A DNA stretch of 64,000 bases from NCBI RefSeq assembly GCF_001468285.1, contig NZ_LNSB01000015.1, forward strand, positions 1 to 64,000. The letters run 5' to 3'. The position numbers and the translations under genes were made by a program. This stretch comes from Sphingopyxis sp. HIX. GTDB lineage: Bacteria > Pseudomonadota > Alphaproteobacteria > Sphingomonadales > Sphingomonadaceae. The notes beneath the pieces are model-generated. The model saw nothing but the letters and a program-made list of their open reading frames with translations. It had not been told where the DNA came from and made no database searches. Positions 3,263 to 57,698 of the stretch are shown piece after piece (the stretch's first letter is position 1; each line of letters opens with the position of its first letter).

Positions 3263-3309
3263 TGGTGGACGCACTAGGGCTCGAACCTAGGACCCGCTGA
3301 TTAAGAGTC
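3263..3309 (-). other. 3' half of tRNA-Lys(CTT): integration attachment site
   Basis: Read on the minus strand, 3309 to 3263 gives the anticodon loop CTCTTAA with its 3' stem, the variable loop, the T arm (CCTAGGTTCGAGCCCTAGT), the acceptor 3' strand and an encoded CCA. The 5' half (acceptor 5' strand, D arm, most of the anticodon 5' stem) is missing, and identity stops exactly at the anticodon stem. A truncated tRNA 3' end beside a tyrosine integrase gene is the standard signature of att duplication by a genomic island. The intact, reconstituted tRNA-Lys should lie at the other end of the element; I saw no second copy in the window. Confidence 0.85.
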
Positions 3310-22274: not shown

Positions 22275-23477
22275 CTAGTCGCCGTCAGCTCCCTCGGTAC
22301 AAAACACTATCGCCTGATTTTCCAGTTCCGCAATCTGGGCCTCACTGTATCCCGATTCAAGCAATATGTGCCGGCTGTGCTGCCCGAAGCCGGGCGGTGC
22401 AGAGTGGACCGATCCTGGCGTCCTGCCGAACTTTGCAGCTATTCCCGTGCCCCGATAGCCTTCCGCATCGATCACCATATTGCGGTGGATGGTATGGGGA
22501 TGCGCCAGTGCGTCGCTGACGTTGCGCACGACGCCTGCCGGCACGCCGGCGATCAGGAGAGTTCGTTCGAGGTCTTCCGCCTCGAATTGAGTTAGGCAAT
22601 GTGCCAGGATTTCGCCAAGCTGTTCTCGATGTGCAATCCTGTCCGCATTGTCGACGAAGCGCTCGTCCCGGGCAATGTCAGGGCGTTCGAGCACTGCGCA
22701 AAGTTTTGCGAACTGACTATTGTTGCCAACCGCGAGATAGATATTTCCGGTTCTCGTCTCGAACATGTCATAGGGTACGATGTTCGGATGACCGTTGCCA
22801 GTCGCGACGGGTGTGTTGCCCGACATCAAGCTATTCGCCGCCTGCGGATGGAGCATGCTGATAGCACAATCGTATAGAGGAACTTCGATCTGTTGACCAA
22901 GCCCTGACCGGCCTCGTTCGATTATGGCGGCAAGGATGGCGTTGCAGGCGATGAGGCCTGTTCCGATATCAACGATAGGCGTTCCCATCCGGACTGGTCC
23001 ATGTTGGGGGTCGCCATTGATGCTCATCAAGCCAGTCATTGCTTGAACCACTGCATCATATCCTGGGAATCCGCCTAACGGGCCGTCGGCACCGAAGCCC
23101 GTAACATGGCACATAACAAGGCGCGGGAAGCGCCCTTCAAGCACTTCGGTGTAGCCCAATCCCCACTTCTCCAGCGCACCACTCTTGAAGTTGTGGACTA
23201 GCACGTCTGCTTCTTCCAACAGCTTCAATATGATGTCCCGTCCTTCCGGTTTGCCCACATCGATTGAGATCGAGCGCTTGTTGCGATTGGCGCCAGAAAA
23301 ATATGCGCTGACGCCGTTCTTGAAGGGCGGGCCCCACGCTCGTGTTTCGTCACCTTGCGGCGGCTCGATCTTTATGACTTCGGCGCCGTAGTCGGCGAGA
23401 ACCTGCGTGCAGTATGGCCCGCCAAGGACGCGGCTGAGGTCAACGACACGAATGCCTGCAAGCGGACCGCCAATCAT
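22275..23477 (-). CDS. family III CoA transferase (CaiB/BaiF)
   Basis: 400 residues, the usual size. Recognisable are GIRVVDLSRVLGGPYCTQVL at the N-terminus, AVNRNKRS-like GANRNKRSISID, DVLVHNFKSGALEKWGLGY, and the catalytic Asp region TPIVDIGTGL. These enzymes move CoA between acids without ATP. In this cluster it would activate the acid product of the ketone pathway. Its start overlaps the end of the alcohol dehydrogenase gene by 4 bases. Confidence 0.93.
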   Translation of the reverse strand: MIGGPLAGIRVVDLSRVLGGPYCTQVLADYGAEVIKIEPPQGDETRAWGPPFKNGVSAYFSGANRNKRSISIDVGKPEGRDIILKLLEEADVLVHNFKSGALEKWGLGYTEVLEGRFPRLVMCHVTGFGADGPLGGFPGYDAVVQAMTGLMSINGDPQHGPVRMGTPIVDIGTGLIACNAILAAIIERGRSGLGQQIEVPLYDCAISMLHPQAANSLMSGNTPVATGNGHPNIVPYDMFETRTGNIYLAVGNNSQFAKLCAVLERPDIARDERFVDNADRIAHREQLGEILAHCLTQFEAEDLERTLLIAGVPAGVVRNVSDALAHPHTIHRNMVIDAEGYRGTGIAAKFGRTPGSVHSAPPGFGQHSRHILLESGYSEAQIAELENQAIVFCTEGADGD

Positions 23478-24628
23478 AGGACTTCCTCATATAGCGAGAC
23501 CACATCGGCAAACGACATGTCGCGCGGATTGTTTGCTTGCAGGCGGGTAAGTCCGGTCGTCACCTCGCTCGCCATCATCGGGACGGCTTCGGCAGAAATG
23601 CCCAGTTGCGAAAGTCGCGTTTCCAGGCCGCTTGAAACAAACATCGACTCGATCGCCAAGATCAGACCGTTGGCCGCCTCAAAATCGTCGGAGAAGGTGT
23701 TCCGGGGCAAAAGCACACGGGCAAGTCGCGCGTATTCAGCCTCGGCGGAGGGGAGGTTGAACCGCAATACCGGTGCTGCAACCAAGGCGTTGCCATGGCC
23801 GTGCGGTACCTGGAAATGGCTGCTCAACGGGTAGGAAAGGGCGTGGATTGAGCCAACGCTGGCATTGATGAACGCCATGCCCGCCAAGGTAGCCCCCAGC
23901 AACACAGCTTCGCGCGCGGCCAAATCCGAAGGAGCGTCAAGTACGCGTGGCAGATTTTGTCCGAGAAGCGCGAGCGCCTTGTCCGCCAGCCCGTCCGATA
24001 CCGGGTTCTTGCGGGTCCGACTGGTCGCAGCCTCGATAGCGTGCACCATCGCGTCAAGGGCAGTTGCTGCAGTAATTTTGCGAGGCATCCCTATGGTAAG
24101 CTCTGCATCAAGCAATGCAACATCCGGGAGCAATTGCGGTGCATAAACCGCCATCTTCTCGTGATTTTCGCTGGTCAGGACCGAAACCCATGTGACTTCC
24201 GAGCCAGTACCCGCCGTTGTGGGGACCTGAATCAATGGCAGCCGCTGGCCGACTGCCCTATCGGTACCGATCATGTCATCGACCGACTGGCCGGTCGCCG
24301 CTGCCAGGGCAACGACTTTCGCAGTATCGAGAGAGCTTCCGCCACCCAAGCCTACAATGGCATCTGCGTGGAAGGACCGGGCGCATTCCACGGCATCGTT
24401 GACCACAGTTATCGGCGGATCCGCTGCCACGCGATCAAAAGTCGATGTCGCGATTCCGACGTCGGCAAGGGCGGAAACGGCTTGTTCGGCAAATCCGCAA
24501 GCAAAAATTCCAGGGTCGGTGACAAGCAAAACGCGACTTCCGCCAAGGCCGCGCATAAGTGCTCCAATTTGAGAGAGCGATCCCGCTTCGCAGATAACGC
24601 GCGGACAGGAACGGAAGTCGAGGCTCAT
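23474..24628 (-). CDS. iron-containing alcohol dehydrogenase
   Basis: 384 residues from the ATG at 24628 (MSLDFRSCPRVICEAGS). It has the NAD-binding GLGGGSSLDTAK, the PTTAGTGSEVT motif, and the iron ligands Asp in LLDAELT and His in DAMVHAIEA, IHALSYP and HGHGNAL. It belongs to the Fe-ADH/maleylacetate reductase superfamily. In context it probably oxidises a hydroxy acid. It is clearly paralogous to the enzyme at 31182-32417. Only 13 bases separate it from the acyl-CoA dehydrogenase upstream. Confidence 0.9.
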   Translation of the reverse strand: MSLDFRSCPRVICEAGSLSQIGALMRGLGGSRVLLVTDPGIFACGFAEQAVSALADVGIATSTFDRVAADPPITVVNDAVECARSFHADAIVGLGGGSSLDTAKVVALAAATGQSVDDMIGTDRAVGQRLPLIQVPTTAGTGSEVTWVSVLTSENHEKMAVYAPQLLPDVALLDAELTIGMPRKITAATALDAMVHAIEAATSRTRKNPVSDGLADKALALLGQNLPRVLDAPSDLAAREAVLLGATLAGMAFINASVGSIHALSYPLSSHFQVPHGHGNALVAAPVLRFNLPSAEAEYARLARVLLPRNTFSDDFEAANGLILAIESMFVSSGLETRLSQLGISAEAVPMMASEVTTGLTRLQANNPRDMSFADVVSLYEEVL

Positions 24629-24641
24629 TTCAAGTCTCCGA

Positions 24642-25802
24642 TCAGGCTGCGTCACGGATCATGTTCCGTGCGATGATGAGTTGCTGAATCTGTGTCGTGC
24701 CTTCGTAAATTCGAAACAGGCGCACATCCCGGTAGAACCGCTCCACTGAATATTCGGACATATAGCCTGCGCCACCATGAATCTGGACCGCGCGATCGGC
24801 GACCCGGCCAACCATCTCGCTGGCGTACATCTTGCAACATGCCGCTTCCGTCGACACGTCTTGACCGGAGTCACGTCGACGTGCGGTCTCCTCGATCATG
24901 CAACGGGCGGCGAATGCCTCGGCCTTGCTGTCGGCTAGCATCGCTTGAATAAGCTGCTTCTCCGCAAGCGCCTCACCGAACTGCCTTCGCTCCATGGCAT
25001 AGCTCAGGCTGTCCCGGATAAGCCGCTCGGCGGCACCGACGCATACGGCAGAAATATGCAGACGACCGCGGTCGAGTACTTTCATTGCCGTCCTGAATCC
25101 CTGGTTTTCGCGATCCGGACCACCGATGATCGCGGATTCGTGCACTCGTACATCCTGGAAAATCACATCGCATGTGTGCGTCCCTCTCTGGCCCATCTTG
25201 CGGTCACGAGCGCCGAATGTGATGCCGGCTGTATCGCCATCCACGAGGAAGGCTGTAACTCCCGAAGAGTTTGTCGATCCCGGCTTGGTGCGTGCGAAAA
25301 CTGTGAACAGTCCTGCGTGCGGCGCGTTTGTTATGAAACGTTTGGTCCCATTTATGACGTAATGATCGCCATCGCGCTTGGCAGATGTGGAAAGCGAACC
25401 GGCGTCAGAGCCCGCATCGGGTTCGGTTAAGGCAAATGAAGAAATCAATTCTCCCGTTGCCAGTCGAGGCAAGTAGCGCTCTCGTTGTTCGGCGGTGCCG
25501 TCGATGATAATCCCTTGCGACCCGATGCCATTGTTCGTTCCGATCAGTGACCGGAACGCCGGGGAGGCCTGACCGAGTACAAATGCAGCTTTTACCTCTT
25601 CGGTCATGGTCAAGCCGAGGCCACCATATTCCTGAGGTATCGACATGCCGAATAGGCCCATGATCCTGATTTCCTCGGTGAGAGCCGGTGGAATTGCATC
25701 GTTTTCGGCCACCTCGGCTTCGCACGGGACGAGCCGCTCGCGGACAAAGCGATCCAGCGTGTCGAGGAACTGTGAGAGTGTATCGTCATCCAGGGGCATC
25801 AA
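24642..25802 (-). CDS. acyl-CoA dehydrogenase
   Basis: 386 residues. Family signatures are FALTEPDAGSDAGS near residue 125, KRFITNAPHAGLFTVFA, and the C-terminal QIHGGAGYMSEYSVERFYRD with the active-site region RLFRIYEGTTQIQ. It would oxidise an acyl-CoA to the 2-enoyl-CoA with FAD, passing electrons to ETF. It leads the minus-strand operon 25802-21337, behind the IclR regulator gene. Confidence 0.94.
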   Translation of the reverse strand: MMPLDDDTLSQFLDTLDRFVRERLVPCEAEVAENDAIPPALTEEIRIMGLFGMSIPQEYGGLGLTMTEEVKAAFVLGQASPAFRSLIGTNNGIGSQGIIIDGTAEQRERYLPRLATGELISSFALTEPDAGSDAGSLSTSAKRDGDHYVINGTKRFITNAPHAGLFTVFARTKPGSTNSSGVTAFLVDGDTAGITFGARDRKMGQRGTHTCDVIFQDVRVHESAIIGGPDRENQGFRTAMKVLDRGRLHISAVCVGAAERLIRDSLSYAMERRQFGEALAEKQLIQAMLADSKAEAFAARCMIEETARRRDSGQDVSTEAACCKMYASEMVGRVADRAVQIHGGAGYMSEYSVERFYRDVRLFRIYEGTTQIQQLIIARNMIRDAA

Positions 25803-25817
25803 AATGTTTCCAAAAGC

Positions 25818-26615
25818 TCAGGGCGAAATCGCGCTGATGTTGCGGACAAGGTCTTTCAGCCGAGCAGAAATGTCGGTTTCGATCCAATCGCGTGATAGGT
25901 GGGACGCCGCCCCGCCGCAGTTGAAGGCTAAAACGGGCGAACCGTCTGAGGGGATGAAGGGCACAGCTACGGAGTTAACATCCGTCTTCCATTCGCCAAT
26001 CGAAAGGCAATATCCGTGTTTCGCGTGGGATTCGAAAGCGTCATATATCCCGCGCTCGATCGCGGGCCAGCCATGGCCTTCATGGTCTTGAATTTCTTGA
26101 AGGATTTCAGATCTGAGATCTTCGGATATACCCGCCAGGTACGCACGACCAATCGCCGTGGTCGCAAGTTTGATATGAGCCCCCACTTCGATCGCGAGTG
26201 TAACCGGGTTTGGACCGCGGCAGCGTTCCAGATAAACCATGGTCAGGCGATCTCTGCCCGCAACCGCAACGGGCATACCCGAGTAGTTCGCCAGCTCCTG
26301 CATATATGGCTTGGCCAACTGCAAGGTCGGCATGCCAGCCAGGCAGGAATATCCTAGAGAAAGGACGGGCGGAGCGAGGCGGTATCGGGCTGTTTCCGGA
26401 TTGAAGCTCAGGTACCCAAGACGATGGAGCGTGTACGTCAGCCTGGAGATGGTCGACTTGCTCAAGCCGGTCCGGGCGGCAAAGTCACCGTTGCCTAAGG
26501 CCTCACCCTCCTTTCGGAAAGCGCGCAAAACTTCGAGTCCACGTCCCAACGCGACCACGAAATCGCGATCTGTATCACCGACTTTTGAAGGCTCCTTGCG
26601 CGGTCGCACCGCCAT
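25818..26615 (-). CDS. IclR-family transcriptional regulator
   Basis: 265 residues. The N-terminal winged helix (about 20-80: VVALGRGLEVLRAFRKEGEA, ARTGLSKSTISRLTYTLHRL) is followed by the IclR effector domain (LAIEVGAHIKLATTAIGRAY, HGWPAIERGIYDAFESH, SVAVPFIPSDGSPVLAFNCG). It is divergent from the aldehyde dehydrogenase gene and heads the acyl-CoA dehydrogenase run, so it probably controls both directions from the intergenic sites at 26686-26721. Confidence 0.92.
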   Translation of the reverse strand: MAVRPRKEPSKVGDTDRDFVVALGRGLEVLRAFRKEGEALGNGDFAARTGLSKSTISRLTYTLHRLGYLSFNPETARYRLAPPVLSLGYSCLAGMPTLQLAKPYMQELANYSGMPVAVAGRDRLTMVYLERCRGPNPVTLAIEVGAHIKLATTAIGRAYLAGISEDLRSEILQEIQDHEGHGWPAIERGIYDAFESHAKHGYCLSIGEWKTDVNSVAVPFIPSDGSPVLAFNCGGAASHLSRDWIETDISARLKDLVRNISAISP

Positions 26616-26685
26616 ACTCCTCTCGCTCCGGTCGTTGCCGGCTTGAAATGCTTCTAAGCACGGAGTAATGCTTCTGTCAAGTTTG

Positions 26686-26721
26686 CGGAATATATTTCGG
26701 CACAGCGGAATATTTTATTTG
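26686..26721. promoter_or_regulatory. paired IclR-type boxes in the divergent promoter
   Basis: Two copies of CGGAATAT occur 20 bases apart (26686-26700 and 26706-26721). The first forms a near-palindrome CGGAATATATTTCGG, which resembles known IclR-family operators of the GGAATA type. Upstream, AATGCTTCT is directly repeated (26647-26655 and 26667-26675), also 20 bases apart. Confidence 0.55.
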
Positions 26722-26771
26722 AGATGCTAGTGCGGCATGGACGCTGGCACTCAAGGTCGGAGAGGGTCGTT

Positions 26772-28226
26772 ATGACGCAACATGATTATACAGACATTGG
26801 ATTGTTCATTGCCGGCGCGTGGATCGATCCAGGAGAACGTGAGGCACAGCCAGTCATCAATCCGGCCACGGCACAGCAGATTGGCCTGATGGCGATGGCA
26901 ACATTGGAAGATCTTGAGGCATCGGTTCGATCCGCCCAGGCGGCTTTTGATGATTGGAAGCAACGTTCGCCGCTCGATCGGAGCGCCATCTTGCGGCGGT
27001 TCGCGGACCTGCTTCGTGAGAACGAAGAATCAATTGCTACGGCCATTACCTTGGATGAAGGGAAGCCGCTGGCTGAAGCGCGCGTTGAAGTACGGGCCTC
27101 GGCCGATCATGTCGATTGGCATGCCGAGGAAGGGCGCCGCATCTATGGCCGAGTGATTCCTTCGCGCTCTCCCACTGTACAACAGCTGGTCCTGCGTGAA
27201 CCAGTGGGGGTATGCTTGGCGATTACGCCCTGGAATTTTCCACTGAGTCAGGCGGTACGTAAGGTCGCGGCCGCGTTAGCTTGCGGTTGCACGATGATCC
27301 TGAAAGGCCCTGCAGAAGCTCCGTCCGCATGTTTGGCCATCGCCCGTTACCTTCAAGAAGCTGGGCTGCCCGATGGGTGCCTCAATCTTGTGTGGGGCAA
27401 TGCGGCGATGATTTCAGAAACGTTGGTGGCCCATCCTGACGTCCGCAAAATTACTTTCACCGGATCGGTTGAAGTCGGCAAGAATCTTGCTGAACTCGCG
27501 GGTCGCCACATGAAGCGCACCACAATGGAACTTGGCGGTCATGCGCCGGTCCTGGTTTTCGACGATGCCGACGCAGAGGGCGCTGCCCTGGCATTGGCTA
27601 GCAACAAGCTGCGAAACGCCGGACAAGTCTGTATTTCACCGACCAGGTTCTTCGTGCAAGCGGGCGTCCACCAACGCTTTGTCGACGCGTTGGTTGACGT
27701 CTTCGCGAGTGTCAAGGTAGGCGATGGGCTCGAGGCGGATGTTCAAATGGGACCGCTGTGCCACGCAAGGCGGATTACGGAAATGGAGCGGCTTGTTGAG
27801 GACGCGCGCGCTGGCGGAGCCGCAGTCCTGGCTGGTGGCGCACGACAGGGAAATGCGGGCTATTTTTTCGCACCGACCATCGTCGATACCATGGGTGATC
27901 GCATCGCACTGATGCGGGATGAACCATTCGGGCCAATTGCCGTTGTTTCGCGCTTTGGTGATATGAGCGATGCTATCGATCGGGCAAACACATTGCCGTT
28001 CGGCTTGGCTTCCTATGTCTTTACCAGTTCGCTTGAGCGGGCCGATCGTGCCGCCGCCGCCCTCCAGGCCGGCATGGTCAGCATCAATCACTTTGGACTG
28101 GCATTACCTGAAACCCCGTTCGGAGGAGTCCGTGACAGCGGCTACGGCACGGAAGGCGGTAGCGAAACCTTTGACGGCTACCTCAACACGAAATTTGTTT
28201 CGCGATTTGCAGGCGTTTGCGCATGA
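26772..28226 (+). CDS. NAD(P)-dependent aldehyde dehydrogenase (succinate-semialdehyde type)
   Basis: 484 residues from the ATG at 26772 (MTQHDYTDIGLFIAGAW). Visible are ITPWNFPLSQAVRKVAAALA, KITFTGSVEVGKNL, the catalytic Glu in MELGGHAPVLV, the nucleophilic Cys in NAGQVCISPTRF and the C-terminal PFGGVRDSGYGTEGG. It is similar to semialdehyde dehydrogenases. In context it would oxidise an omega-oxo acid to a dicarboxylic acid. It is the first gene of the plus-strand half of the cluster, divergent from IclR. Confidence 0.93.
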   Translation: MTQHDYTDIGLFIAGAWIDPGEREAQPVINPATAQQIGLMAMATLEDLEASVRSAQAAFDDWKQRSPLDRSAILRRFADLLRENEESIATAITLDEGKPLAEARVEVRASADHVDWHAEEGRRIYGRVIPSRSPTVQQLVLREPVGVCLAITPWNFPLSQAVRKVAAALACGCTMILKGPAEAPSACLAIARYLQEAGLPDGCLNLVWGNAAMISETLVAHPDVRKITFTGSVEVGKNLAELAGRHMKRTTMELGGHAPVLVFDDADAEGAALALASNKLRNAGQVCISPTRFFVQAGVHQRFVDALVDVFASVKVGDGLEADVQMGPLCHARRITEMERLVEDARAGGAAVLAGGARQGNAGYFFAPTIVDTMGDRIALMRDEPFGPIAVVSRFGDMSDAIDRANTLPFGLASYVFTSSLERADRAAAALQAGMVSINHFGLALPETPFGGVRDSGYGTEGGSETFDGYLNTKFVSRFAGVCA

Positions 28227-28583
28227 GCGATGTCATGATGGTGCGGATCGAACGCCGCGATCGTACTGCACCCGATCATCGACAATCCCTGGGAATCCTC
28301 GACATGCGAGGGTCCTCTACACGAAATGTTGGCAATGCAGCAAAGGGACTTGCCCGGTCCGATGTGCGCTATGGCCTTGGTTGCGACGTGTGTTGGCGTC
28401 GGCGGACAGAGCGTTTGCTCCTAATGTGACAGCAATAAACGACAACGGAACGCGCAGGGAAATTCAAGACGTCCTCACCAGCGCAACCTAGCGTCTCCTC
28501 CTGATCACGCCTCACATCTGTCTGCCTCATGCGACGGGCAGCGGTGGAGTACGGCGTTCGCAAGAATTTGGATGGAGAGGAAA
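28227..28583. other. intergenic stretch, nothing recognised
   Basis: About 357 bases between the aldehyde dehydrogenase and the esterase gene. Short frames are present but none has a plausible product. It may hold a promoter for the esterase-BVMO-ADH operon; no clear boxes are seen. Confidence 0.4.
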
Positions 28584-29486
28584 ATGGCAGAAAATCGGGA
28601 AGCAGATTTCCTGCGCGAGCTGTACCAGGATTGGAGCGACCGAATGGTCGCTGATCCTGAAATGTCCATCGCAGGGCTGCGCAGTATGTTCGACGAGTGG
28701 GGCAAGCCCGCACGCGAGCCGGAAGGGGTAAGCTACAAGTCAGATGAAATTGGCGGTGTTCCAGGCATATGGGCATTCCCGCGAGATGCAGATCTCTCTC
28801 GCGTCATACTCTACACCCACGGCGGAGGTTTCGCGGTCGGTTCAGCTGATAGCCATCGCAAGCTTGTGGGGCATCTTGCGAAAGCTCTGGGCGTATCAGC
28901 TTTCATCCTGGACTATCGACGATCGCCCGAATTTCCATTTCCGGCCCAGATCGAGGATGCGGTTGCGTCATATTTGGGCTTGATCGAAAGAGGCATAGAG
29001 CCCCGGCACATAACAAGTGCGGGTGACAGCGCCGGCGGCAATCTTGCCATTGCCATGGTTCTTCAACTTCGAGAACTTGGCGAGCAGCTTCCTGGAAGCC
29101 TCATCGCGTTTTCGCCCTGGCTGGACATGGCGTTGCGTGGTGCCACGCTGGAGACAAACGCCGCAACGGATGCTCTCGTTGGCAGGCCGATACTGGAAGG
29201 TATGATCGCCATGTTTCTTGGCGACGCGGCCAGTCCGCTAAATCCGCTGGCGAACCCGCTCGAGAACAGCTTTCGGCGATTCCCTCCATTGTACGTCAAT
29301 GCGGGCGGCGCCGAGACATTGCTAAGCGACGCCGAAGCCTTGTGCGAAAAGGCACGGAGCGAAGGCGTTTCAGTCGCGTTCTCGGTCGTCCCTGGCATGC
29401 AGCATGTCTTTCCAGCTCTCGCCGGTCGAGCCGCTGAAGCTGACGAGGAACTGCTCAAGATCGCCGCTTGGTATCACTCACTTTGA
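28584..29486 (+). CDS. alpha/beta hydrolase of the HSL (GDXG) family, putative lactone/ester hydrolase
   Basis: 300 residues from the ATG at 28584 (MAENREADFL), chosen because GGAGAGG lies just before it; an ATG 12 bases upstream includes that site. It has the HSL oxyanion motif YTHGGGFAVGS, the nucleophile GDSAGGN, an Asp in the YVNAGGAETLLSDAEAL region and a catalytic His in PGMQHVFP. Hydrolases of this family open the lactone made by Baeyer-Villiger enzymes (as ChnC does), and the BVMO gene follows 62 bases later, so that role is likely here. Confidence 0.9.
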   Translation: MAENREADFLRELYQDWSDRMVADPEMSIAGLRSMFDEWGKPAREPEGVSYKSDEIGGVPGIWAFPRDADLSRVILYTHGGGFAVGSADSHRKLVGHLAKALGVSAFILDYRRSPEFPFPAQIEDAVASYLGLIERGIEPRHITSAGDSAGGNLAIAMVLQLRELGEQLPGSLIAFSPWLDMALRGATLETNAATDALVGRPILEGMIAMFLGDAASPLNPLANPLENSFRRFPPLYVNAGGAETLLSDAEALCEKARSEGVSVAFSVVPGMQHVFPALAGRAAEADEELLKIAAWYHSL

Positions 29487-29547
29487 CACGCGCGAAAATC
29501 CATTTCGCAGCAACGGTTTGTGCGGGAACCCCGCTCTGGAGAAAATA

Positions 29548-31185
29548 ATGATCAGCAATGTAACCGCGACAAAAACCCATGGTGCCGATTTCGACGCGAT
29601 TGTCATCGGCGGAGGCTTTGGAGGACTCTATGCGGTCCATAAGCTTCGCAATGAGCAGGGTCTTCACGTGAAGGCCTATGACAATGCGAGCGACGTCGGG
29701 GGAACCTGGCACTGGAATCGTTACCCCGGAGCCCTTTCCGATACGGAGAGCTTTTGTTACCGCTTTTCGTTTGACAAGGAACTTCTTGATCAAGGCAGCT
29801 GGCAGTCTCGATACCTTACGCAGCCCGAGATTCTCGAATATCTGAACGGCGTCGCTGACCGCTTTGATCTGCGCAGCAGCTATCAATTCAATACGAAAAT
29901 CGTGTCAACCCGCTTCGACGAGGCCACCGGCTTGTGGCACGTTTTGACAGATAAGGGGGAGTCGGCATCGGCGAAGTATCTGATCACCGGCCTGGGGCTG
30001 CTTTCGGCAATAAACAAGCCACGATTCGCCGGCATCGATGAATATCGCGGCGAAGTTTACCATACTGGCGCTTGGCCAGAAGGCGCCGATCTGAGCGGAA
30101 AGCGTGTCGGCATTATAGGAACCGGCTCTACAGGCGTTCAGGTCATCATCGCGCTTGCGCCCATTGTGCAGCATCTGGCCGTGTTTCAACGATCGGCCCA
30201 ATATGTGGTTCCTATTGGAAACTGGCCCGAAGACACCGAGACGATCGACAATTATAAGGCCAACTATGACGAAATCTGGAAACAGATTAAGCGTTCACAG
30301 GTTGCCTTTGGCTTCGCCGAGAGCACAACGTCAGGACTAGATGTCTCCGAAGCCGAACGAGACCGGGTATTCGAAGAAGCCTGGCAGCGAGGTGGCGGCT
30401 TCCGCTTCATGTTCGAGACATTCACCGATGTCGCAACCAGTCATGACGTAAACACGTCCGCTGCCAACTTCATCAAGCGGAAAATTGCCAGAATTGTGAA
30501 GGATCCGGACATTGCCCGGAAACTGATGCCTAGCGATCTTTATGCCAAACGCCCCCTGTGCGCAACGGACTACTACGGAGTCTATAATCGGAAGAACGTG
30601 TCGCTGGTAGACGTCAAGGAAGATCCGATCACCGAGTTCACGGCAAATGGCGTTAGCCTGGCCAGTGGTATCGAGCACGAACTTGACGTCGTGATTTTCG
30701 CCACGGGATTCGATGCGGTCGACGGGAACTATACGAAGATCGATATTCACGGGCGCGGCGGTGTAACCATTCGCGAAAAATGGGCCGATGGTCCCTTGGG
30801 GTATCTCGGAATGATGGAGGCCGACTTCCCGAACATGTTCATGATCCTCGGCCCGAATGGCCCATTCACAAACCTTCCGCCGAGTCTCGAAAGCCAGGTT
30901 GACTGGATTGCCGACGCGATCGCCACCATGGAAGCCGACGGCCGCTCCACGATCGAGCCGACACAGGCCGCCGAAGACGAGTGGGTAGAGACGTGCCGGA
31001 CAATTGCAAATATGACACTCTTCCCGAAAGCTGAATCGTGGATCTTCGGAGCTAATATTCCGGGAAAGAAAAACGCCGTGATGTTCTATCTCGGCGGCCT
31101 TGGAAATTACCGCGATGCGCTTCAGGCGGTGCGCGAGTCAGGATATGACTCAATGATTTTCGATCGCGAAGCAATTTTGACGTGA
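29548..31185 (+). CDS. FAD-dependent Baeyer-Villiger monooxygenase (cyclohexanone monooxygenase-like)
   Basis: 545 residues from the ATG at 29548 (MISNVTATKTHGADFDAIV), the usual type I BVMO length. It has two Rossmann motifs, GGGFGGLYAVHKL and GTGSTGVQVIIAL, and between them the BVMO fingerprint in the form YRGEVYHTGAWP, with Tyr replacing the usual first Phe. DVGGTWHWNRYPGALSD and VIFATGFDAVDGNY are also typical. It inserts oxygen beside a ketone using NADPH, giving an ester or lactone. It overlaps the next gene's GTG start. Confidence 0.94.
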   Translation: MISNVTATKTHGADFDAIVIGGGFGGLYAVHKLRNEQGLHVKAYDNASDVGGTWHWNRYPGALSDTESFCYRFSFDKELLDQGSWQSRYLTQPEILEYLNGVADRFDLRSSYQFNTKIVSTRFDEATGLWHVLTDKGESASAKYLITGLGLLSAINKPRFAGIDEYRGEVYHTGAWPEGADLSGKRVGIIGTGSTGVQVIIALAPIVQHLAVFQRSAQYVVPIGNWPEDTETIDNYKANYDEIWKQIKRSQVAFGFAESTTSGLDVSEAERDRVFEEAWQRGGGFRFMFETFTDVATSHDVNTSAANFIKRKIARIVKDPDIARKLMPSDLYAKRPLCATDYYGVYNRKNVSLVDVKEDPITEFTANGVSLASGIEHELDVVIFATGFDAVDGNYTKIDIHGRGGVTIREKWADGPLGYLGMMEADFPNMFMILGPNGPFTNLPPSLESQVDWIADAIATMEADGRSTIEPTQAAEDEWVETCRTIANMTLFPKAESWIFGANIPGKKNAVMFYLGGLGNYRDALQAVRESGYDSMIFDREAILT

Positions 31186-32417
31186 GTTCTGCGACGCGAC
31201 CGCTCGATGGATCGCTCGCCGCGCCAACTCGCAATGCGGCAGAAACGAGATTTGGGAGTCGCGAGACGCCGCTTGTTTTTCGTTCAGTGCCGACCCTCCA
31301 TGTCGAATGGGGCGTCCATCGCCGCTTGGGACAATTCTTTGCTGAGTGTTTTGCAGAGCGCCGCATCCTGATCGTTACGGACCATCATCTGCGCGCCGCT
31401 GGTATCCTGGATCCTGCTTTGGAATCGCTCGAAGGAGCCGGCTTCGCAATAACGGTTTTTGACGGCGTTGTTGCCGACCCACCCGAATCCGTGCTCGCCA
31501 ACGCTGTCCAGCTGGCGCGTGAGGCGGGCACGAATATCGTTCTTGGCCTGGGTGGCGGTTCATCGATGGATATTGCCAAGCTGGTTGCGGTCCTTGCTGT
31601 CTCAGAGCAACATCTGTCCGAACTCTACGGCATAGATCGCGTAAGGGGCAAAAGAGTGCCCCTGGTACAAATGCCAACTACCGCCGGCACAGGGTCCGAG
31701 GCAACGAACATATCGATCCTGACCACGGGGGAATCTTCGAAATCGGGAATTATAGCGCAGCAGCTATACGCCGATCGGGTCATCCTTGATGCGGAACTTG
31801 CCTGCGGTATGCCGCCGCTCCTCACTGCGGCAACAGGCATCGACGCGATCGTGCATGCCATCGAGGCATATACGAGCCAGAACCGCAAGAACCCCATGTC
31901 CGATATGTTTGCTCGCGAAGCCCTCCGGCTCATGACGGGCAACTTGATCACCGCTTGTCGCGTTGGTCATGACAGGGACGCGCGAGAAGCCATGATGCTT
32001 GGTGCAAATCTTGCGGGGCAGGCGTTTGCGAACGCGCCGGTCGCGGCGGTCCACGCGCTTGCTTATCCGCTCGGAGGACTTTTTCACATCGCACATGGGC
32101 TGTCCAACGCACTCATGCTGATGCCGGTACTTCGATTCAATATGGTAACAGCGGCGGCGCTGTACGCCGAACTTGGCGACGCGGTCTTGGGGCCTACGGC
32201 AGCACCGACTGTCGAGAGGGCTGAGGCGTTTGTGTCCTTCATTGGCCAGCTGCTCGTCGATTCCGGTTGCCCATTGCGGCTTCGGGACGTGGAAGTTCCT
32301 GAAAAGAGCCTGCCTTCGCTCGCGAGAGATGCGATGCTGCAGACCCGGCTTCTCGTCAACAATCCGAGAGCCATGACGGAACAAGACGCCCTGTCGCTAT
32401 ATCGAGAAGCCTACTGA
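31182..32417 (+). CDS. iron-containing alcohol dehydrogenase (second copy)
   Basis: 411 residues, starting at a GTG that overlaps the BVMO stop (GTGA). Motifs are GLGGGSSMDIAKLVAV, PTTAGTGSEAT, ILDAELACGMP, DAIVHAIEAYTSQNRKNP, VHALAYPLGG and HIAHGLSNAL, which include the iron ligands. It is paralogous to the enzyme at 23474-24628 but has a longer N-terminus. Its coupling to the BVMO suggests it either forms the ketone from an alcohol or oxidises the hydroxy acid after ring opening. Confidence 0.9.
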   Translation: MSSATRPLDGSLAAPTRNAAETRFGSRETPLVFRSVPTLHVEWGVHRRLGQFFAECFAERRILIVTDHHLRAAGILDPALESLEGAGFAITVFDGVVADPPESVLANAVQLAREAGTNIVLGLGGGSSMDIAKLVAVLAVSEQHLSELYGIDRVRGKRVPLVQMPTTAGTGSEATNISILTTGESSKSGIIAQQLYADRVILDAELACGMPPLLTAATGIDAIVHAIEAYTSQNRKNPMSDMFAREALRLMTGNLITACRVGHDRDAREAMMLGANLAGQAFANAPVAAVHALAYPLGGLFHIAHGLSNALMLMPVLRFNMVTAAALYAELGDAVLGPTAAPTVERAEAFVSFIGQLLVDSGCPLRLRDVEVPEKSLPSLARDAMLQTRLLVNNPRAMTEQDALSLYREAY

Positions 32418-32438
32418 GGCTACCGAGTTTTCTCCCGA

Positions 32439-32918
32439 ATGGTATTCCCGTTGAAGCGTCTTGCCCAAGGAGGCAGATTGGAAAAAGCGAAACTCCTGTC
32501 ACGCGGTGCTTACCCTCAATGGGCCAAGATTCAGACGCAATGGGCGGACAATGACGTCTATGGTCATGTCAACAACGCCGTGCACTATGGATGGTTTGAT
32601 ACTGCGATCAACAGCTGGCTGATCGGCAGCGGCCTGCTTCGTCTAAGTGGGGGCAAGCTGATCGGTCTGGTGGTCGAGACGGGATGTAGATATGCAGAAG
32701 CAGTCTGCTATCCCGAAGCCGTCGATGTGGGGTTTGGCGTAAGCCATTTGGGGCGAACAAGCGTGACGTATCGCGTTGGCATTTTCCGCGAGCTGAGCGT
32801 CCTTGCTGCCGCGGAAGGGCATTTCACCCATGTCATGGTAGATCGTAAGAGCCGCCGACCAGTCGTCTTGCCCGCGCGATGGCGAAAAGTCCTTGCGGCG
32901 CAGATGATCGAAACTTGA
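32439..32918 (+). CDS. hotdog-fold acyl-CoA thioesterase (4HBT)
   Basis: Up to 159 residues. The signature QWADNDVYGHVNNAVHYGWF is the 4HBT active-site loop. The ATG at 32439 has a weak ribosome site, whereas a TTG at 32478 is preceded by AAGGAGG, so the true protein may begin there (LEKAKLLSRG). It probably releases CoA from an intermediate of the pathway. It is on the same strand, 21 bases after the alcohol dehydrogenase, and is distinct from the thioesterase at 10814-11224. Confidence 0.87.
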   Translation: MVFPLKRLAQGGRLEKAKLLSRGAYPQWAKIQTQWADNDVYGHVNNAVHYGWFDTAINSWLIGSGLLRLSGGKLIGLVVETGCRYAEAVCYPEAVDVGFGVSHLGRTSVTYRVGIFRELSVLAAAEGHFTHVMVDRKSRRPVVLPARWRKVLAAQMIET

Positions 32919-33239
32919 TATCGCATGATGCTCGATCGTCGCTGATCGTGAGCTGACCGGGCGCCTCGGCCGTGGCTCTGCAAAGCGCCACGCTTTCCTA
33001 AAATCATCAGTGCGGCCCGGCAGGAATTTATAGCTGCTCTTGCGGCCGGAATGGCCGCGAAATCTTAGGCAATCCCGGTTGCCACCTCGCAGGATTGTTC
33101 AACCCATGCGAGCAAGGATTTTCAAGACTGCCGCCCCTCGATGGGCTCTACGCCTTGACGACAAACTAAGTCGGCATTCGCCTTTCCGCAAGCAGCGGGA
33201 GACGCGTGAAGAGCCGAACTTTGCAATCGAGGGAGAGAG
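32919..33239. other. intergenic stretch upstream of the TonB receptor
   Basis: About 320 bases without a gene, presumably carrying the receptor promoter. The only firm element is the ribosome binding site GAGGGAGAGAG directly before the start at 33240. Confidence 0.4.
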
Positions 33240-35804
33240 ATGATGAACCTGAAGGCAATTTCGCAGCTTCTATGTGGTTGCGCTTGGGGCATTGCGCTGT
33301 TGCCCGGGCAAGTGAACGCCCAGGCGATGGCGAGCAGCGCCGGCGACGTGATCGATCAAGCTTCAGAAGAAGGCCATGGCGACGAGATCATCGTTACCGC
33401 ACGGCAGAAGAACGAATCCCTGAAGGATGTTCCTGCGTCGGTCTATGTGCTCTCGACCGACACAATCGAAAATACCAAAGCTCGCGTAGCAGTCGATTTC
33501 GTGAGCTTGACTTCGGGTGTCACCATTCAAACCGCCACAACCGATCCATCGGACGTGTCCATCAACATCAGAGGTCTGAACAGCCCGCGCGACGCGGAAA
33601 ACAACATTGCGCTGGTGGTCGATGGCGTTCTCAAGACGAGCATTGCTTCAACTAATGAGCCTCAGGGTGCGCTGGCACAGGTCGAAATTCTCAAGGGGCC
33701 ACAGGGCGCTATCTACGGTCGGAACGCGTCGGCCGGCGCTATCGTCATTACGACAAAGAAGCCGACGCCGGATCTGTCTGGTCAGATCAAGGGCCGTGTC
33801 GCCAACGACAACACATATCTCGTCTCCGGGCTGCTAAGTGGCCCTGTCACAGATGGTGTCGGATTCGTGCTGAACGGCGAATGGACCAAGTCGGACGGAT
33901 ATTATCGCAACACCTTCGTAGGGTCGGATCTGCATCAGAGTGTGTACGGCTATCGCGGCAATCCGGCTTCAGTGGACAGCTATAACAAATTGAACATCTT
34001 TGGGCGCATCCTGATTGAGCCCTCGGATGACACCGAAATCGATCTCAAGGCCAATTACGGAAGAAGCCACGGCGGCGCACTGAGTTTCAACGCAGTCTTC
34101 CAGATCCCAACACTCGCGCAAGCGTTCAATGACCCGATTTTCAACGCGCCGGTGAGCAAGCACAAGTTCATATTCACGGACGACACCGAGGCTAAGCACT
34201 GGCAAAAAACATATGGGGCGTCGATGAGAATTCGGCAGGACCTGGATTTCGGCACATTGATCGGAGTCGTGGCCTACAACAACAACAGGAATGAATATAT
34301 TGCTGGAGGAACGAGCGGGGCGTTCGGTTTTTTCAACAACGAGCCCACCTGCATCCGCACCAGGCCAGCCACGGCAGGAGTAGTCAACCAGGCGCCATTT
34401 ACACAGTATAATGCTGCGTTCGGTTTCGCCATGCCCTACTCACCTTCCACCTGCGACGGTATCCAGGGCAATCGTCGCACGCAGAAAGATGTGGTTTCGG
34501 AAATCCGGCTCACTGGCGGCGAAGGCACCTCGTTGAACTGGCAACTGGGAGGTAGCTACATCTACATCGATCGACGGGTTTGCGTAAACCTTACTCTCGA
34601 CACGGGCCAGGGCGGGACGCGTCAGTGCTTCACGACGGACCCGCGATTCCCGACGGAGAATCTCACCGATGACAATTACCGGACCAATGTCTATGCCGTG
34701 TTTGCCGCAGCCGACTGGGACGCGACTGACAAACTTCGGCTGGGCGTCGCACTGCGCTACGATATCGAAGCGCGCGACCGCATCAATAATGTTCCGGTAA
34801 ATGCCCGCACGCGCTGGGTTGGCAATCCGCGTACGGGATATCCGATTGGTACGGCGACCACGCCGTCGAACTATTTCCTCAATCCAGGGCTCGACCCGGC
34901 CTATAACCCGTCGGGCGTGATTGCCCCGATTTCGGAAACGTTCAAGCAACTTCAACCGAAGATCACGATCACCTACAAGCCCAACAATGACCTCACGATT
35001 TTCGGAAACTGGGGCATGGGATTCAAGGCCGGTGGCTTCAATCCGGCCGGCACCGAGGCAATCATCAATGGCTACTTCAATCCGCCGCCGCCGACAGGCA
35101 TCAGTGCCGGAATCTCGGTTCCCGATCTCATCAAAAAGGAAACCAACAGCGCATTCGAACTTGGCGTTAAGGGGCGTGTTTTCGATGCGGTGAACTTCGA
35201 AGTGGCCGGTTTTCTCACCAACGTGAAAAACATGCAATTCTTTGAATTCTTCGTCGGCGACTTCGGTTTGCTGCGGAGCACCTCCAATATCGACAAGGTG
35301 CAGATCTACGGTATCGACGCTTCAATCGACTATAAGATATCGCCCGTCTTCAAGGTTTTCGTGAACGGAAACTACACCGAGAGCGAAATCAAAGCCAATA
35401 GCGGCCGTCCTTATACCGTCGGCAACAAATCTCCTGCGACGCCCGATTTCACGATCAACGGCGGCGTGCAGATGAATGCCCCGGTTTCCGACCGGGTCAA
35501 TCTGGTTAGCCGCATCGATTTCAGAGTTGTCGGTCCAACCCCGTTCCATACCGTTCAACGGAATACGACACCGACCATCTTCGGGTTGCCGGCAACCTAT
35601 GACAACTCGACGCGGGATACATTTGCGACCGTGAATGCAAGACTCGGTGTGGATGTTGGCAACTTCTCGATTTCTGCGTTCGCTACCAACCTGTTTAACA
35701 AGCACTATGTCGAGGACGTGGTGATCGCTCCGGAGTTCGGAGGCGACTTCATTGCAGGTGGCGCGCTCCGCCGGTTCGGCGTCGACGTCTCCTATAAGTT
35801 CTAG
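33240..35804 (+). CDS. TonB-dependent receptor (catabolic-cluster type)
   Basis: 854 residues. It has a signal peptide (MMNLKAISQLLCGCAWGIAL, cleavage near VNAQA), the TonB-box-like EIIVTARQKNESLKDVPASV, the plug domain with QVEILKGPQGAIYGRNASAG, and a barrel ending in GALRRFGVDVSYKF. This is the large sphingomonad receptor class found beside catabolic genes, rather than the siderophore class, so it probably imports the hydrophobic growth substrate of the cluster. Gene is intact. Confidence 0.93.
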   Translation: MMNLKAISQLLCGCAWGIALLPGQVNAQAMASSAGDVIDQASEEGHGDEIIVTARQKNESLKDVPASVYVLSTDTIENTKARVAVDFVSLTSGVTIQTATTDPSDVSINIRGLNSPRDAENNIALVVDGVLKTSIASTNEPQGALAQVEILKGPQGAIYGRNASAGAIVITTKKPTPDLSGQIKGRVANDNTYLVSGLLSGPVTDGVGFVLNGEWTKSDGYYRNTFVGSDLHQSVYGYRGNPASVDSYNKLNIFGRILIEPSDDTEIDLKANYGRSHGGALSFNAVFQIPTLAQAFNDPIFNAPVSKHKFIFTDDTEAKHWQKTYGASMRIRQDLDFGTLIGVVAYNNNRNEYIAGGTSGAFGFFNNEPTCIRTRPATAGVVNQAPFTQYNAAFGFAMPYSPSTCDGIQGNRRTQKDVVSEIRLTGGEGTSLNWQLGGSYIYIDRRVCVNLTLDTGQGGTRQCFTTDPRFPTENLTDDNYRTNVYAVFAAADWDATDKLRLGVALRYDIEARDRINNVPVNARTRWVGNPRTGYPIGTATTPSNYFLNPGLDPAYNPSGVIAPISETFKQLQPKITITYKPNNDLTIFGNWGMGFKAGGFNPAGTEAIINGYFNPPPPTGISAGISVPDLIKKETNSAFELGVKGRVFDAVNFEVAGFLTNVKNMQFFEFFVGDFGLLRSTSNIDKVQIYGIDASIDYKISPVFKVFVNGNYTESEIKANSGRPYTVGNKSPATPDFTINGGVQMNAPVSDRVNLVSRIDFRVVGPTPFHTVQRNTTPTIFGLPATYDNSTRDTFATVNARLGVDVGNFSISAFATNLFNKHYVEDVVIAPEFGGDFIAGGALRRFGVDVSYKF

Positions 35805-35961
35805 CTCGTTGGTCCGGTCCGGGATTCCCAAGCATCATTGCTGAGGATCCCGGGTCGCTAAATGCTCGGGAAGACCTGCAGACAGCCAGCGTCTTGCCCA
35901 CCCTGCACTGGTACCAACCGCGATTGGCAAGACAATATGTCATTGAAGGAATGGATCGATC

Positions 35962-37104: not shown

Positions 37105-37170
37105 TCGGCGGCGTTATAAACGCTGGCGCCGCCACCATTGGCAGTTCAGATAGCCGGATGGAGACAAGAA

Positions 37171-38052
37171 TTGGAGCGGATAGGGTGGATCGGCGCTGGC
37201 AAGATGGGCTCACCGATGAGCTTTCGCCTGGCGAGACAAGGCTATGCGGTAACGGTGTTCGACCCATCGCATGCCGAAATTGAGCCTCTGATCGCCGAAG
37301 GCGGGCGGAGGGCGTCGAGCTTGGCGGAATTGGCTGAAGCGAGCGACCTGATATTTCTCACCATTCCCAACGACCAGGCGCTCGAGCAGATCATCTTCGG
37401 CGAAAACGGGATTCTCCCCGCGTTGGATGAATCGAAGCTGCTCATCGAAATGAGCACATTGTCGCCCGCCGTGTCAGCGAAGGTGGCGTCCGCGCTCGCC
37501 GCCGCTGGCGCGCGCTATCTGCGCGCGCCCGTTTCCGGCAGCACCGTCATGGCAAAGGATGGGAAGCTCACTGTGCTCGCGTCGGGCAATAGGGACGACT
37601 ACGCCGCCGTGCTGCCGCTCCTGTCTTGCCTTTCGGCGCGCCAGTTTCTTGTCGGAACAGCGGAGGAAGCCCGCTACCTGAAACTTGTCCTCAACCTGAT
37701 GTTGGCAGGCACCGCAGCACTGGTCGGCGAAGCGCTGACTTTTGGCGAAAAGGGCGGTCTCTCTGTCGAGGCTATGCTCGATGTCATCTGCGAAAGCGTG
37801 GTGGCATCGCCGGTTCTGGACTACAAGCGCGCCATGCTTATTCGGCGCGATTTTACTCCCGCGTTTACGGTGTCACAGATGATCAACGACGTTGATCTCG
37901 CGCTGGATTCGGCCAAGTTCGACCACGTCCCGATGGCGCTCAGCGCGCTCGTCCGTCAGCAATATGAAGCCGCCCGCGCACAAGGGCATGGCGCGAGAGA
38001 CTTTTTCATGCTGCTCGAACAATGCGAGCGTGATGCTGGCTTCGCCATGTAA
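37171..38052 (+). CDS. NAD(P)-dependent oxidoreductase, 3-hydroxyisobutyrate dehydrogenase family
   Basis: 293 residues from a TTG at 37171 (LERIGWIGAGKMG), 7 bases after GGAG; another TTG at 37138 would add 11 residues without a ribosome site. It has the Rossmann motif GWIGAGKMGSPMSFRL, the substrate-binding RAPVSGSTVMAKDGKLTVL, and the catalytic Lys in EARYLKLVLNLMLAG. The family oxidises beta-hydroxy acids or reduces the semialdehyde. Here it probably handles an intermediate of the same pathway; its exact substrate cannot be read. Confidence 0.88.
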   Translation: MERIGWIGAGKMGSPMSFRLARQGYAVTVFDPSHAEIEPLIAEGGRRASSLAELAEASDLIFLTIPNDQALEQIIFGENGILPALDESKLLIEMSTLSPAVSAKVASALAAAGARYLRAPVSGSTVMAKDGKLTVLASGNRDDYAAVLPLLSCLSARQFLVGTAEEARYLKLVLNLMLAGTAALVGEALTFGEKGGLSVEAMLDVICESVVASPVLDYKRAMLIRRDFTPAFTVSQMINDVDLALDSAKFDHVPMALSALVRQQYEAARAQGHGARDFFMLLEQCERDAGFAM

Positions 38053-54938: not shown

Positions 54939-54952
54939 TGCGGTCGCCCTCG

Positions 54953-56374: not shown

Positions 56375-56452
56375 GGCGGGTTTCCTTTGGAAGGCAAAGA
56401 TCCCGCTCCCGGCCCGCCAAGCCCGGGTTGCAGGGTGATGAGGCATCCCATA

Positions 56453-56497
56453 TCATCCTTGCATTTTCGGAATATAACTCCGAATATGCAAGGATGA
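56453..56497. promoter_or_regulatory. 45-bp palindrome overlapping the ATPase start codon
   Basis: The left arm (TCATCCTTGCATTTTCGGA) and right arm (TCCGAATATGCAAGGATGA) pair at 18 of 19 positions around ATATAAC. The ATG of the ATPase gene (56494) and the only AAGG before it lie in the right arm, so an RNA hairpin would hide the translation start, or a DNA-binding protein would cover it. Confidence 0.8.
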
Positions 56498-57663: not shown

Positions 57664-57698
57664 CCACCCGTTCCGGGAGCGGCGGACGTTGTTCGTGG

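What the first reader, a model, noticed from the sequence alone, without database searches (positions are those of the whole stretch)
22275..38052. Mobile cluster for stepwise degradation of a cyclic ketone
A BVMO, an HSL-type hydrolase, two Fe-dependent ADHs, an ALDH, a family III CoA transferase, an acyl-CoA dehydrogenase, an old yellow enzyme and a hydroxy-acid dehydrogenase sit around one IclR promoter, with a catabolic TonB receptor. This follows the chemistry of cyclohexanone degradation (chn genes) but with unrelated alcohol dehydrogenases and a CoA transferase in place of a ligase. The OYE suggests the substrate is an unsaturated ketone such as a terpenoid enone. Presence on an ICE would make it transferable.
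Basis: partly seen in the sequence, partly recalled or inferred. Interest (0 to 1): 0.75.

Follow-up and report, generated by a model that had tools for sequence, protein, structure and literature searches.

The report
Transferable cyclohexanone-degradation gene cluster
A block of about 13 genes that looks able to turn cyclohexanone-like ring ketones into ordinary metabolites sits on a DNA element that moves between bacteria; the chemistry follows a known pathway, but the gene set is a little-described version of it.

Summary
In detail: every named gene is present around one IclR/ALDH divergent promoter. The BVMO is of cyclohexanone-monooxygenase type (72% to a Xanthobacter flavus CHMO record). 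The core AraC-CoA transferase-FeADH-ACAD-IclR <> ALDH-(FadB)-hydrolase-CHMO recurs in Novosphingobium and Sphingobium and on Roseibium and Sulfitobacter plasmids, with a PcaF-type thiolase in the four sister copies tested. This points to cyclohexanone -> caprolactone -> 6-hydroxyhexanoate -> adipate -> adipyl-CoA. Fe-ADH appears to replace the zinc ADH (0 of 31 CHMO loci have both). ICE carriage is well supported: both ends lie at tRNA-Lys, and 37.9 kb is 100.0% identical to another Sphingopyxis species whose rpoB region differs by 7%. The terpenoid-enone idea is not supported: OYE and the hydroxyacid dehydrogenase were seen in none of seven core clusters outside Sphingopyxis (two truncated). 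Against completeness: the window's cluster lacks its relatives' FadB and thiolase, and no PcaF over cut-off was found in the three Sphingopyxis genomes. No function was tested. A new variant of a known pathway.

The parts
3263..3309 (-). ICE left end: 47-bp copy of the 3' end of tRNA-Lys(CTT)
   Evidence: exact match to intact tRNA-Lys on G000:C43; same junction in H050 and H053
3517..4809 (+). tyrosine integrase beside the left end
   Evidence: Arm-DNA-bind_3 and Phage_integrase
21337..22215 (-). AraC-type regulator that travels with the cluster (possible ChnR counterpart)
   Evidence: 76-77% in 4 sphingomonad loci, 50% in Sulfitobacter, annotated at the same place in Roseibium
22275..23477 (-). 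family III CoA transferase, proposed dicarboxylate (adipate) activation
   Evidence: Pfam; close solved relatives include succinate-hydroxymethylglutarate CoA-transferase 9br6; 73% to Sulfitobacter, 80% to a partial Roseibium sequence
23474..24655 (-). Fe-type alcohol dehydrogenase 1, proposed 6-hydroxyhexanoate dehydrogenase
   Evidence: 68-70% orthologue on 20 plasmid records, 18 of them with a CHMO within about 9 kb (by eye)
24642..25802 (-). acyl-CoA dehydrogenase, proposed adipyl-CoA dehydrogenase
   Evidence: EGT motif; 79% to Roseibium
25818..26615 (-). IclR regulator, PcaR/PcaU/PobR-like
   Evidence: below the TIGR02431 cut-off
26684..26710 (+). predicted IclR operator, three boxes TGCGGAA-N5-TTCCGCA-N2-GCGGAA (1 mismatch)
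   Evidence: conserved in 6 aligned sequences; 1 match in the window, 0.03 expected
26724..28226 (+). SSADH-like aldehyde dehydrogenase, proposed 6-oxohexanoate dehydrogenase (likely start 26772)
   Evidence: GQVC and ELGG
28572..29486 (+). HSL-type alpha/beta hydrolase, proposed lactone hydrolase
   Evidence: HGGG and GDSAG; directly before CHMO in the six plasmid regions opened
29548..31185 (+). cyclohexanone monooxygenase-type BVMO, 545 aa
   Evidence: 72% over 99% to X. flavus CHMO record; the seven best PDB sequences are CHMOs
31182..32417 (+). Fe-type alcohol dehydrogenase 2 (seen only in the Sphingopyxis version)
   Evidence: 45% to Roseibium FeADH; follows CHMO where an SDR stands in Roseibium
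32439..32918 (+). 4HBT acyl-CoA thioesterase (seen only in the Sphingopyxis version)
33240..35804 (+). TonB-dependent receptor, orthologue seen only in sphingomonad loci
   Evidence: 90% in L011, L013, L014
35962..37104 (+). OYE-family reductase, accessory
   Evidence: only in Sphingopyxis copies of the core
37138..38052 (+). 3-hydroxyisobutyrate-dehydrogenase-like protein, accessory
   Evidence: only in Sphingopyxis copies of the core
51204..63821 (-). F-type transfer genes of the ICE (TraG, TraF, TraN matches)
   Evidence: TraC and TrbI follow at C15:68.4-72.9 kb

Best explanation
A mobile catabolic module for cyclohexanone (and perhaps cyclohexanol). Uptake is proposed through the TonB receptor. 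CHMO makes epsilon-caprolactone; the HSL hydrolase opens it to 6-hydroxyhexanoate; FeADH1 gives 6-oxohexanoate; the SSADH-like ALDH gives adipate; the family III CoA transferase moves CoA, probably from succinyl-CoA, to adipate; the acyl-CoA dehydrogenase starts beta-oxidation. In sister clusters FadB and PcaF-type thiolase would finish to acetyl-CoA and succinyl-CoA, which would feed the CoA transferase. IclR acts at a three-box operator between the two arms; AraC is a second regulator. An ICE at tRNA-Lys carries it between Sphingopyxis species. Shown by sequence: gene content, orthology, synteny, operator conservation, ICE ends, identical DNA in different species. Inferred: every reaction, the substrate, the regulation and the transfer event itself.
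For: CHMO identity. Catalytic motifs of BVMO, hydrolase, ALDH, acyl-CoA dehydrogenase and Fe-ADHs (partly by eye). Same order on Roseibium and Sulfitobacter plasmids. Thiolase over the PcaF cut-off in sister clusters. FeADH1 orthologue at 1e-100 on 20 of 72,556 plasmid records, 18 of these with a CHMO of at least 70% identity within about 9 kb (compared by eye). Fe- and Zn-ADH never together, 0 of 31 loci. Precedent: a caprolactam-induced SSADH-like ALDH, CaiB-like CoA transferase, acyl-CoA dehydrogenase and thiolase proposed for 6-oxohexanoate and adipate in P. jessenii (PMC6061476, passages). ICE.
Against: The window cluster lacks the FadB and thiolase of its relatives, and no PcaF over cut-off was found in the three Sphingopyxis genomes. 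The SDR and ETF genes of the Roseibium cluster are not in it either (locus L009). Four Sphingopyxis-only genes (FeADH2, 4HBT, OYE, HIBADH) have no role in the scheme. CHMO-type BVMOs accept many ketones (recalled), so enzyme class does not fix the substrate. CoA transferase, ALDH and IclR score below the curated cut-offs of the models listed. Left-flank relatives showed no tRNA-Lys, so the empty site was not seen. No expression or growth data.
Confidence: 0.72

Rival explanations
1. One reading: a pathway for an unsaturated or terpenoid cyclic ketone, in which OYE first reduces the C=C bond and CHMO then acts on the saturated ketone.
For: OYE and a second Fe-ADH are kept in all three Sphingopyxis copies; the loss of the PcaF-type thiolase could mean a branched product.
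Against: OYE and HIBADH were not seen in sister clusters with the same core. The OYE is below all NCBIfam cut-offs listed and nearest to NamA/YqjM, a family with many substrates (recalled). An ALDH after the hydroxy acid needs a primary alcohol, so the migrating carbon is CH2 (chemical inference).
Confidence: 0.13
2. The core degrades cyclic ketones of several ring sizes and the Sphingopyxis version has been remodelled for another ring size or for partial oxidation, using generic beta-oxidation genes elsewhere in the genome.
For: No PcaF over cut-off in G000, G429 or G430; a full-length FadB-like gene (42%) and other thiolases are present in G000.
Against: CHMO, hydrolase and CoA transferase are 81-89% identical to copies that have the PcaF-type thiolase.
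Confidence: 0.12
3. An aryl or linear ketone pathway in which the BVMO and hydrolase make an ester, alcohol and acid.
For: HSL hydrolases are ester-active (recalled); the IclR resembles regulators of aromatic catabolism.
Against: BVMO scores 722-739 bits with CHMO chains and 460-475 with phenylacetone monooxygenase; the CoA transferase plus acyl-CoA dehydrogenase arm would have no purpose.
Confidence: 0.03

Closest known systems
Acinetobacter cyclohexanol pathway (chnA-E, ChnR; layout recalled)
   Same: CHMO, lactone hydrolase, hydroxy-acid dehydrogenase, semialdehyde dehydrogenase and AraC-type regulator in one cluster
   Different: FeADH instead of zinc ADH ChnD; IclR added; CoA transferase, acyl-CoA dehydrogenase and TonB receptor included; no SDR cyclohexanol dehydrogenase in the window cluster
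Plasmid clusters of Roseibium aggregatum NZ_CP045625 and Sulfitobacter D7 NZ_CP020697
   Same: AraC-CoAT-FeADH-ACAD-IclR <> ALDH ... HSL-CHMO
   Different: they also hold FadB, SDR, EtfB, EtfA and PcaF; TonB receptor, second FeADH, OYE and HIBADH were not seen in the stretches opened
Novosphingobium percolationis, Sphingobium fluviale and Novosphingobium FKTRR1 clusters (L011, L012, L014/L111)
   Same: core at 79-90% protein identity, AraC at 76%, TonB receptor in L011 and L014
   Different: FadB and PcaF-type thiolase kept; FeADH2, 4HBT, OYE and HIBADH not seen; 99.8-100% DNA identity among the three
P. jessenii caprolactam cluster (PMC6061476, passages)
   Same: SSADH-like 6-oxohexanoate dehydrogenase, CaiB-like CoA transferase, acyl-CoA dehydrogenase, thiolase proposed for adipate
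   Different: enters through a lactamase and aminotransferase; no BVMO in the passages seen

Membership tests
cyclohexanone (chn) catabolic cluster | CHMO-type BVMO | tested here: met
   72% to X. flavus CHMO record; seven best solved sequences are CHMOs
cyclohexanone (chn) catabolic cluster | adjacent lactone hydrolase | tested here: met
   HSL gene directly upstream, also in the six plasmid regions opened; activity not tested
cyclohexanone (chn) catabolic cluster | zinc-type 6-hydroxyhexanoate dehydrogenase (ChnD) | tested here: not met
   Fe-ADH instead; 0 of 31 loci have both
cyclohexanone (chn) catabolic cluster | 6-oxohexanoate dehydrogenase (ChnE-type ALDH) | tested here: inconclusive
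   SSADH-like ALDH with GQVC and ELGG; none of the 25 models shown is over its cut-off
cyclohexanone (chn) catabolic cluster | SDR cyclohexanol dehydrogenase (ChnA) | tested here: not met
   no SDR near CHMO in L009, which equals the window; present in Roseibium and Sulfitobacter
cyclohexanone (chn) catabolic cluster | AraC-type activator ChnR | tested here: inconclusive
   AraC gene travels with CHMO clusters; not compared with Acinetobacter ChnR itself
cyclohexanone (chn) catabolic cluster | growth on or induction by cyclohexanone | not testable with these tools
   needs culture work
Type I BVMO | two GxGxxG motifs (recalled) | tested here: met
   GGGFGG 21, GTGSTG 191
Type I BVMO | FxGxxxHxxxW[PD] fingerprint (recalled) | tested here: inconclusive
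   strict F form gave no match; relaxed form with Y matches YRGEVYHTGAWP at 166
ICE | site-specific integrase and tRNA direct repeat at the left end | tested here: met
   integrase 3517-4809; 47-bp tRNA-Lys copy
ICE | second end at the intact tRNA | tested here: met
   C43:12939-20000 is 100.0% identical between G000 and H050 directly 3' of tRNA-Lys; 5' side 85.1%
ICE | relaxase, coupling protein and T4SS | tested here: met
   TrwC, TrwB/TraD, TraC, TrbI, TraG, TraF, TraN matches; spread over two contigs
ICE | excision and transfer | not testable with these tools
   only indirect: identical DNA in different species
PcaR/PcaU/PobR regulators (TIGR02431) | score over the curated cut-off | tested here: not met
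   123.8 against 284.75 bits
PcaR/PcaU/PobR regulators (TIGR02431) | three-box operator, palindrome plus direct repeat, as for PcaU | tested here: met
   PMC8222616 passages; the box sequence differs and binding is untested
succinate-glutarate CoA transferase (NF052585) | score over the curated cut-off | tested here: not met
   355.2 against 750 bits

The most novel reading that the evidence does not exclude
A complete cyclohexanol/cyclohexanone-to-succinyl-CoA module, using an iron-type 6-hydroxyhexanoate dehydrogenase and a succinyl-CoA-fed CoA transferase under a PcaU-like three-box switch, spreads as one unit on ICEs and plasmids through Sphingomonadales, Rhodobacterales and Hyphomicrobiales. 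In Sphingopyxis it has been rebuilt: its beta-oxidation genes are gone and FeADH2, a thioesterase, an OYE and a hydroxyacid dehydrogenase are added, so that it now handles a different, possibly unsaturated, ring ketone.
Probability: 0.22. Interest if true: 0.62.

Novelty: new variant of a known kind. Interest (0 to 1): 0.48.

Why it matters
CHMO is a workhorse of biocatalysis, yet its natural context outside Acinetobacter and Rhodococcus is little described (recalled). The evidence points to a CoA-transferase version of the pathway that would need no ATP-dependent ligase, carries its own FadB and thiolase in six of the clusters seen (L011, L012, L013, FKTRR1, Roseibium, Sulfitobacter), and appears to have moved recently between species and genera. 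It gives concrete candidates: an iron-type 6-hydroxyhexanoate dehydrogenase, an adipate CoA transferase, and an operator sequence for a possible dicarboxylate or lactone sensor.

Tried and rejected
Terpenoid enone: not supported, since OYE and HIBADH are not part of the core seen outside Sphingopyxis.

Aryl or linear ketone: rejected on BVMO class.

M. aquaticum plasmid Fe-ADH, the only DNA-level plasmid hit to the region: it lies in an acyclic-terpene (AtuA) region with no BVMO in the annotation shown, so it was not counted as a sister cluster.

The window's thioesterase is not a BLASTP relative of the thioesterase beside the Sulfitobacter cluster.

I first read the C43 tRNA-Lys site as unoccupied, because C43 and H050 align on both sides. 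Splitting the alignment at the tRNA showed 85.1% on one side and 100.0% on the other, i.e. an element end. The empty site was not reconstructed: the left-flank relatives scanned carry no tRNA-Lys within the 1.5 kb fetched.

My stricter Fe-ADH pattern (second half of the metal site) and the strict BVMO fingerprint gave no match; the metal-site histidines were then read by eye from the printed sequences.

P450 12061-15339 as the first pathway step: left open. It is BM3-like, was not found in the sister loci, and has TetR genes nearby.
Full report
What is there. Pfam confirms every gene in the finding. The BVMO frame opens at 29404, but its start is better placed at 29548 (545 aa). Motifs (their meaning is recalled): BVMO GGGFGG, GTGSTG and YRGEVYHTGAWP (Y where the strict fingerprint has F); hydrolase HGGG and GDSAG; ALDH GQVC and ELGG; acyl-CoA dehydrogenase EGT; both Fe-ADHs a DxxxH pair and, read by eye after a stricter pattern failed, two further His 14 residues apart. 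A contiguous lower-GC stretch covers the cluster.

What the BVMO is. Of the 120 best hits shown, the nearest named CHMO with a named organism is 'Cyclohexanone 1,2-monooxygenase' of Xanthobacter flavus, 72% over 99% (P0077); that it was characterised at the bench is recalled. The seven best solved sequences are CHMOs, 722-739 bits; phenylacetone monooxygenase scores 460-475.

Where the cluster recurs. One scan of one-genome-per-species contigs confirmed 149 loci and kept the best 80. Sphingopyxis H050 has the whole cluster at 99-100% protein identity, H053 at 94-100%. N. percolationis, S. fluviale and Novosphingobium UBA6272 have the core at 78-90% (AraC 76-77%), with FadB and a thiolase between ALDH and hydrolase; in Novosphingobium FKTRR1 the core is split over two contigs (L014, L111). 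In plasmids 126 of 72,556 records hold a CHMO-like gene at 1e-100, 24 of them at 60-80% identity. The Roseibium aggregatum plasmid reads AraC-CoAT-FeADH-ACAD-IclR <> ALDH-FadB-HSL-CHMO-SDR-EtfB-EtfA-PcaF (FadB is annotated otherwise but is 62% to the Novosphingobium FadB); Sulfitobacter D7 is alike. Window identities to Roseibium: CoAT 80 (partial sequence), FeADH 70, ACAD 79, IclR 68, ALDH 74, HSL 72, CHMO 72%. Actibacterium has ACAD-IclR-HSL-CHMO-SDR with a medium-chain (zinc-type) ADH.

Why FeADH1 is a pathway enzyme. Comparing coordinates by eye, 18 of these 20 have a CHMO of at least 70% within about 9 kb (one, Phaeobacter G2, only if its record is circular); CP084956 and CP139702 are not among the CHMO records of 60% or more. 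The reverse is less strict: 2 of the 20 records with a CHMO of 70% or more (Actibacterium, Mameliella) lack it. Among 31 loci with CHMO of at least 50% identity, 9 have an Fe-ADH within 10.5 kb (in L010 the one in range is FeADH2), 8 a zinc-type ADH, none both; 14 have neither, some only because the locus is short. Sulfitobacter counts as 'neither' in that script, but its FeADH lies just outside the locus. These loci are not independent, so I give no P value.

Why adipate. The cluster thiolase passes the curated 3-oxoadipyl-CoA thiolase cut-off (597 bits) in N. percolationis, S. fluviale and UBA6272 (656-657) and in Roseibium (660); none of 14 control genomes has one over the cut-off. In P. 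jessenii a SSADH-like ALDH, a CaiB-like CoA transferase, an acyl-CoA dehydrogenase and a thiolase are induced by caprolactam and proposed for 6-oxohexanoate and adipate (PMC6061476, passages). In Ralstonia a CoA transferase of the operon under pcaR has negative fitness on adipate (PMC12543098, passages). Solved relatives of the window's CoA transferase include succinate-hydroxymethylglutarate CoA-transferase (third listed sequence, after 4ed9 and a formyl-CoA transferase chain), but it is below all curated cut-offs listed.

What does not fit. Window, H050 and H053 lack the cluster FadB and thiolase; the best matches to the N. percolationis proteins in their genomes are 42-43% and 41-44%. None of the three genomes showed a PcaF over cut-off. 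They have gained, or the others have lost, FeADH2, 4HBT, OYE and HIBADH. So the Sphingopyxis version may lean on generic beta-oxidation or may have changed substrate. I hold the second as the novel case.

Regulation. The IclR-ALDH intergenic region of six sequences (window, H053, N. percolationis, UBA6272, Roseibium, Sulfitobacter) shares TGCGGAA-N5-TTCCGCA-N2-GCGGAA: exact palindrome in H053, L011, L013 and Roseibium, degenerate in Sulfitobacter, one mismatch in the window at 26684-26710, the only match in 64 kb at up to 3 mismatches (0.03 expected). PcaU, PobR and HmgR sites also have a palindrome plus an external direct half-site, needed for PcaU binding (PMC8222616, passages). The box sequence is different and the protein is below the TIGR02431 cut-off: it may work like, but is not shown to be, a member. 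AraC: 11 of the 120 listed AraC relatives have a longest contig equal in length to that of one of the 120 listed CHMO relatives (by eye), which fits linkage.

Mobility. A 47-bp stretch at 3263-3309 equals the 3' end of tRNA-Lys(CTT), beside an integrase. H050 and H053 break at the same point, with different left flanks. From 3263 to 41182 the window and H050 are 100.0% identical to one decimal (matches of 17,672 and 21,635 bp that overlap), while their rpoB regions are 92.8% identical. H053 is 93.5-99.8% over most of C15:3253-72335, with one 362-bp piece at 87.8%. In the window's genome the intact tRNA-Lys lies on contig C43: 5' of it C43 is 85.1% identical to H050, and 3' of it 100.0% over 7,062 bp. 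There sit a TrwC relaxase and a TrwB/TraD protein; TraG, TraF, TraN, TraC and TrbI matches lie on C15. So the element is most simply an ICE; its full length is unknown because of contig breaks. Across genera, N. percolationis and S. fluviale share 12.5 kb at 100.00% against 81.5% at rpoB. Within the genus, 3 of 80 genomes have this CHMO at about 100%; 38 of 80 have some match at 1e-100, the rest of these at 36-44%. In a sample of the family, 2 of 397 have a match at 1e-150, the window's own included; that draw missed H050 and H053, so it undercounts.

In print. Ten paper searches in open PMC text listed no paper that I could recognise as describing this Fe-ADH/CoA-transferase cluster. I saw listings (one search showed 30 of 72) and passages of seven papers; subscription papers are not held. 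PMC6771000 (passages) says H050 came from drinking water.

Verdict. It is a new variant of the cyclohexanone pathway with a partly unexplained Sphingopyxis form.

Noticed in passing
12061-15339: BM3-like self-sufficient P450 (P450-reductase fusion, 1092 aa) on the same ICE, 100% in H050 and within a 97.8% stretch in H053; substrate unknown.
   Followed up: partly
L010 2719-8179: H053 has about 6 kb more between ALDH and hydrolase than the window, with a transposase-like fragment (by eye), two SDRs, a second, distant BVMO (514 aa) and an AraC-like gene: a possible second ketone module.
   Followed up: partly
L115:14362-19163 (contig C15, about 78.4-83.2 kb, outside the window): Asparagine-synthase-like protein next to a prolyl-oligopeptidase-like protein and a 283-aa ORF: resembles a lasso-peptide cluster with an isopeptidase (recalled likeness).
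   Followed up: no
42870-50603: Several toxin-antitoxin-like genes on the ICE: HipA, PIN, RES and a nucleotidyltransferase/HEPN fusion.
   Followed up: no
L106, L108, L111: N. percolationis, S. fluviale and FKTRR1 share DNA to about 7.7 kb beyond AraC at 99.8-100.0% identity, so a second, different mobile element may carry the sister cluster.
   Followed up: partly
L013 16464-21503: The UBA6272 cluster is followed by P-type (Trb-like) conjugation genes, by eye from the translations.
   Followed up: no
L145 4395-4441 (G430:C9:64395-64441): H050 has a second tRNA-Lys att-like copy (1 mismatch) with a related integrase (64% DNA identity) 26 kb away, which suggests stacked elements at tRNA-Lys.
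   Followed up: partly
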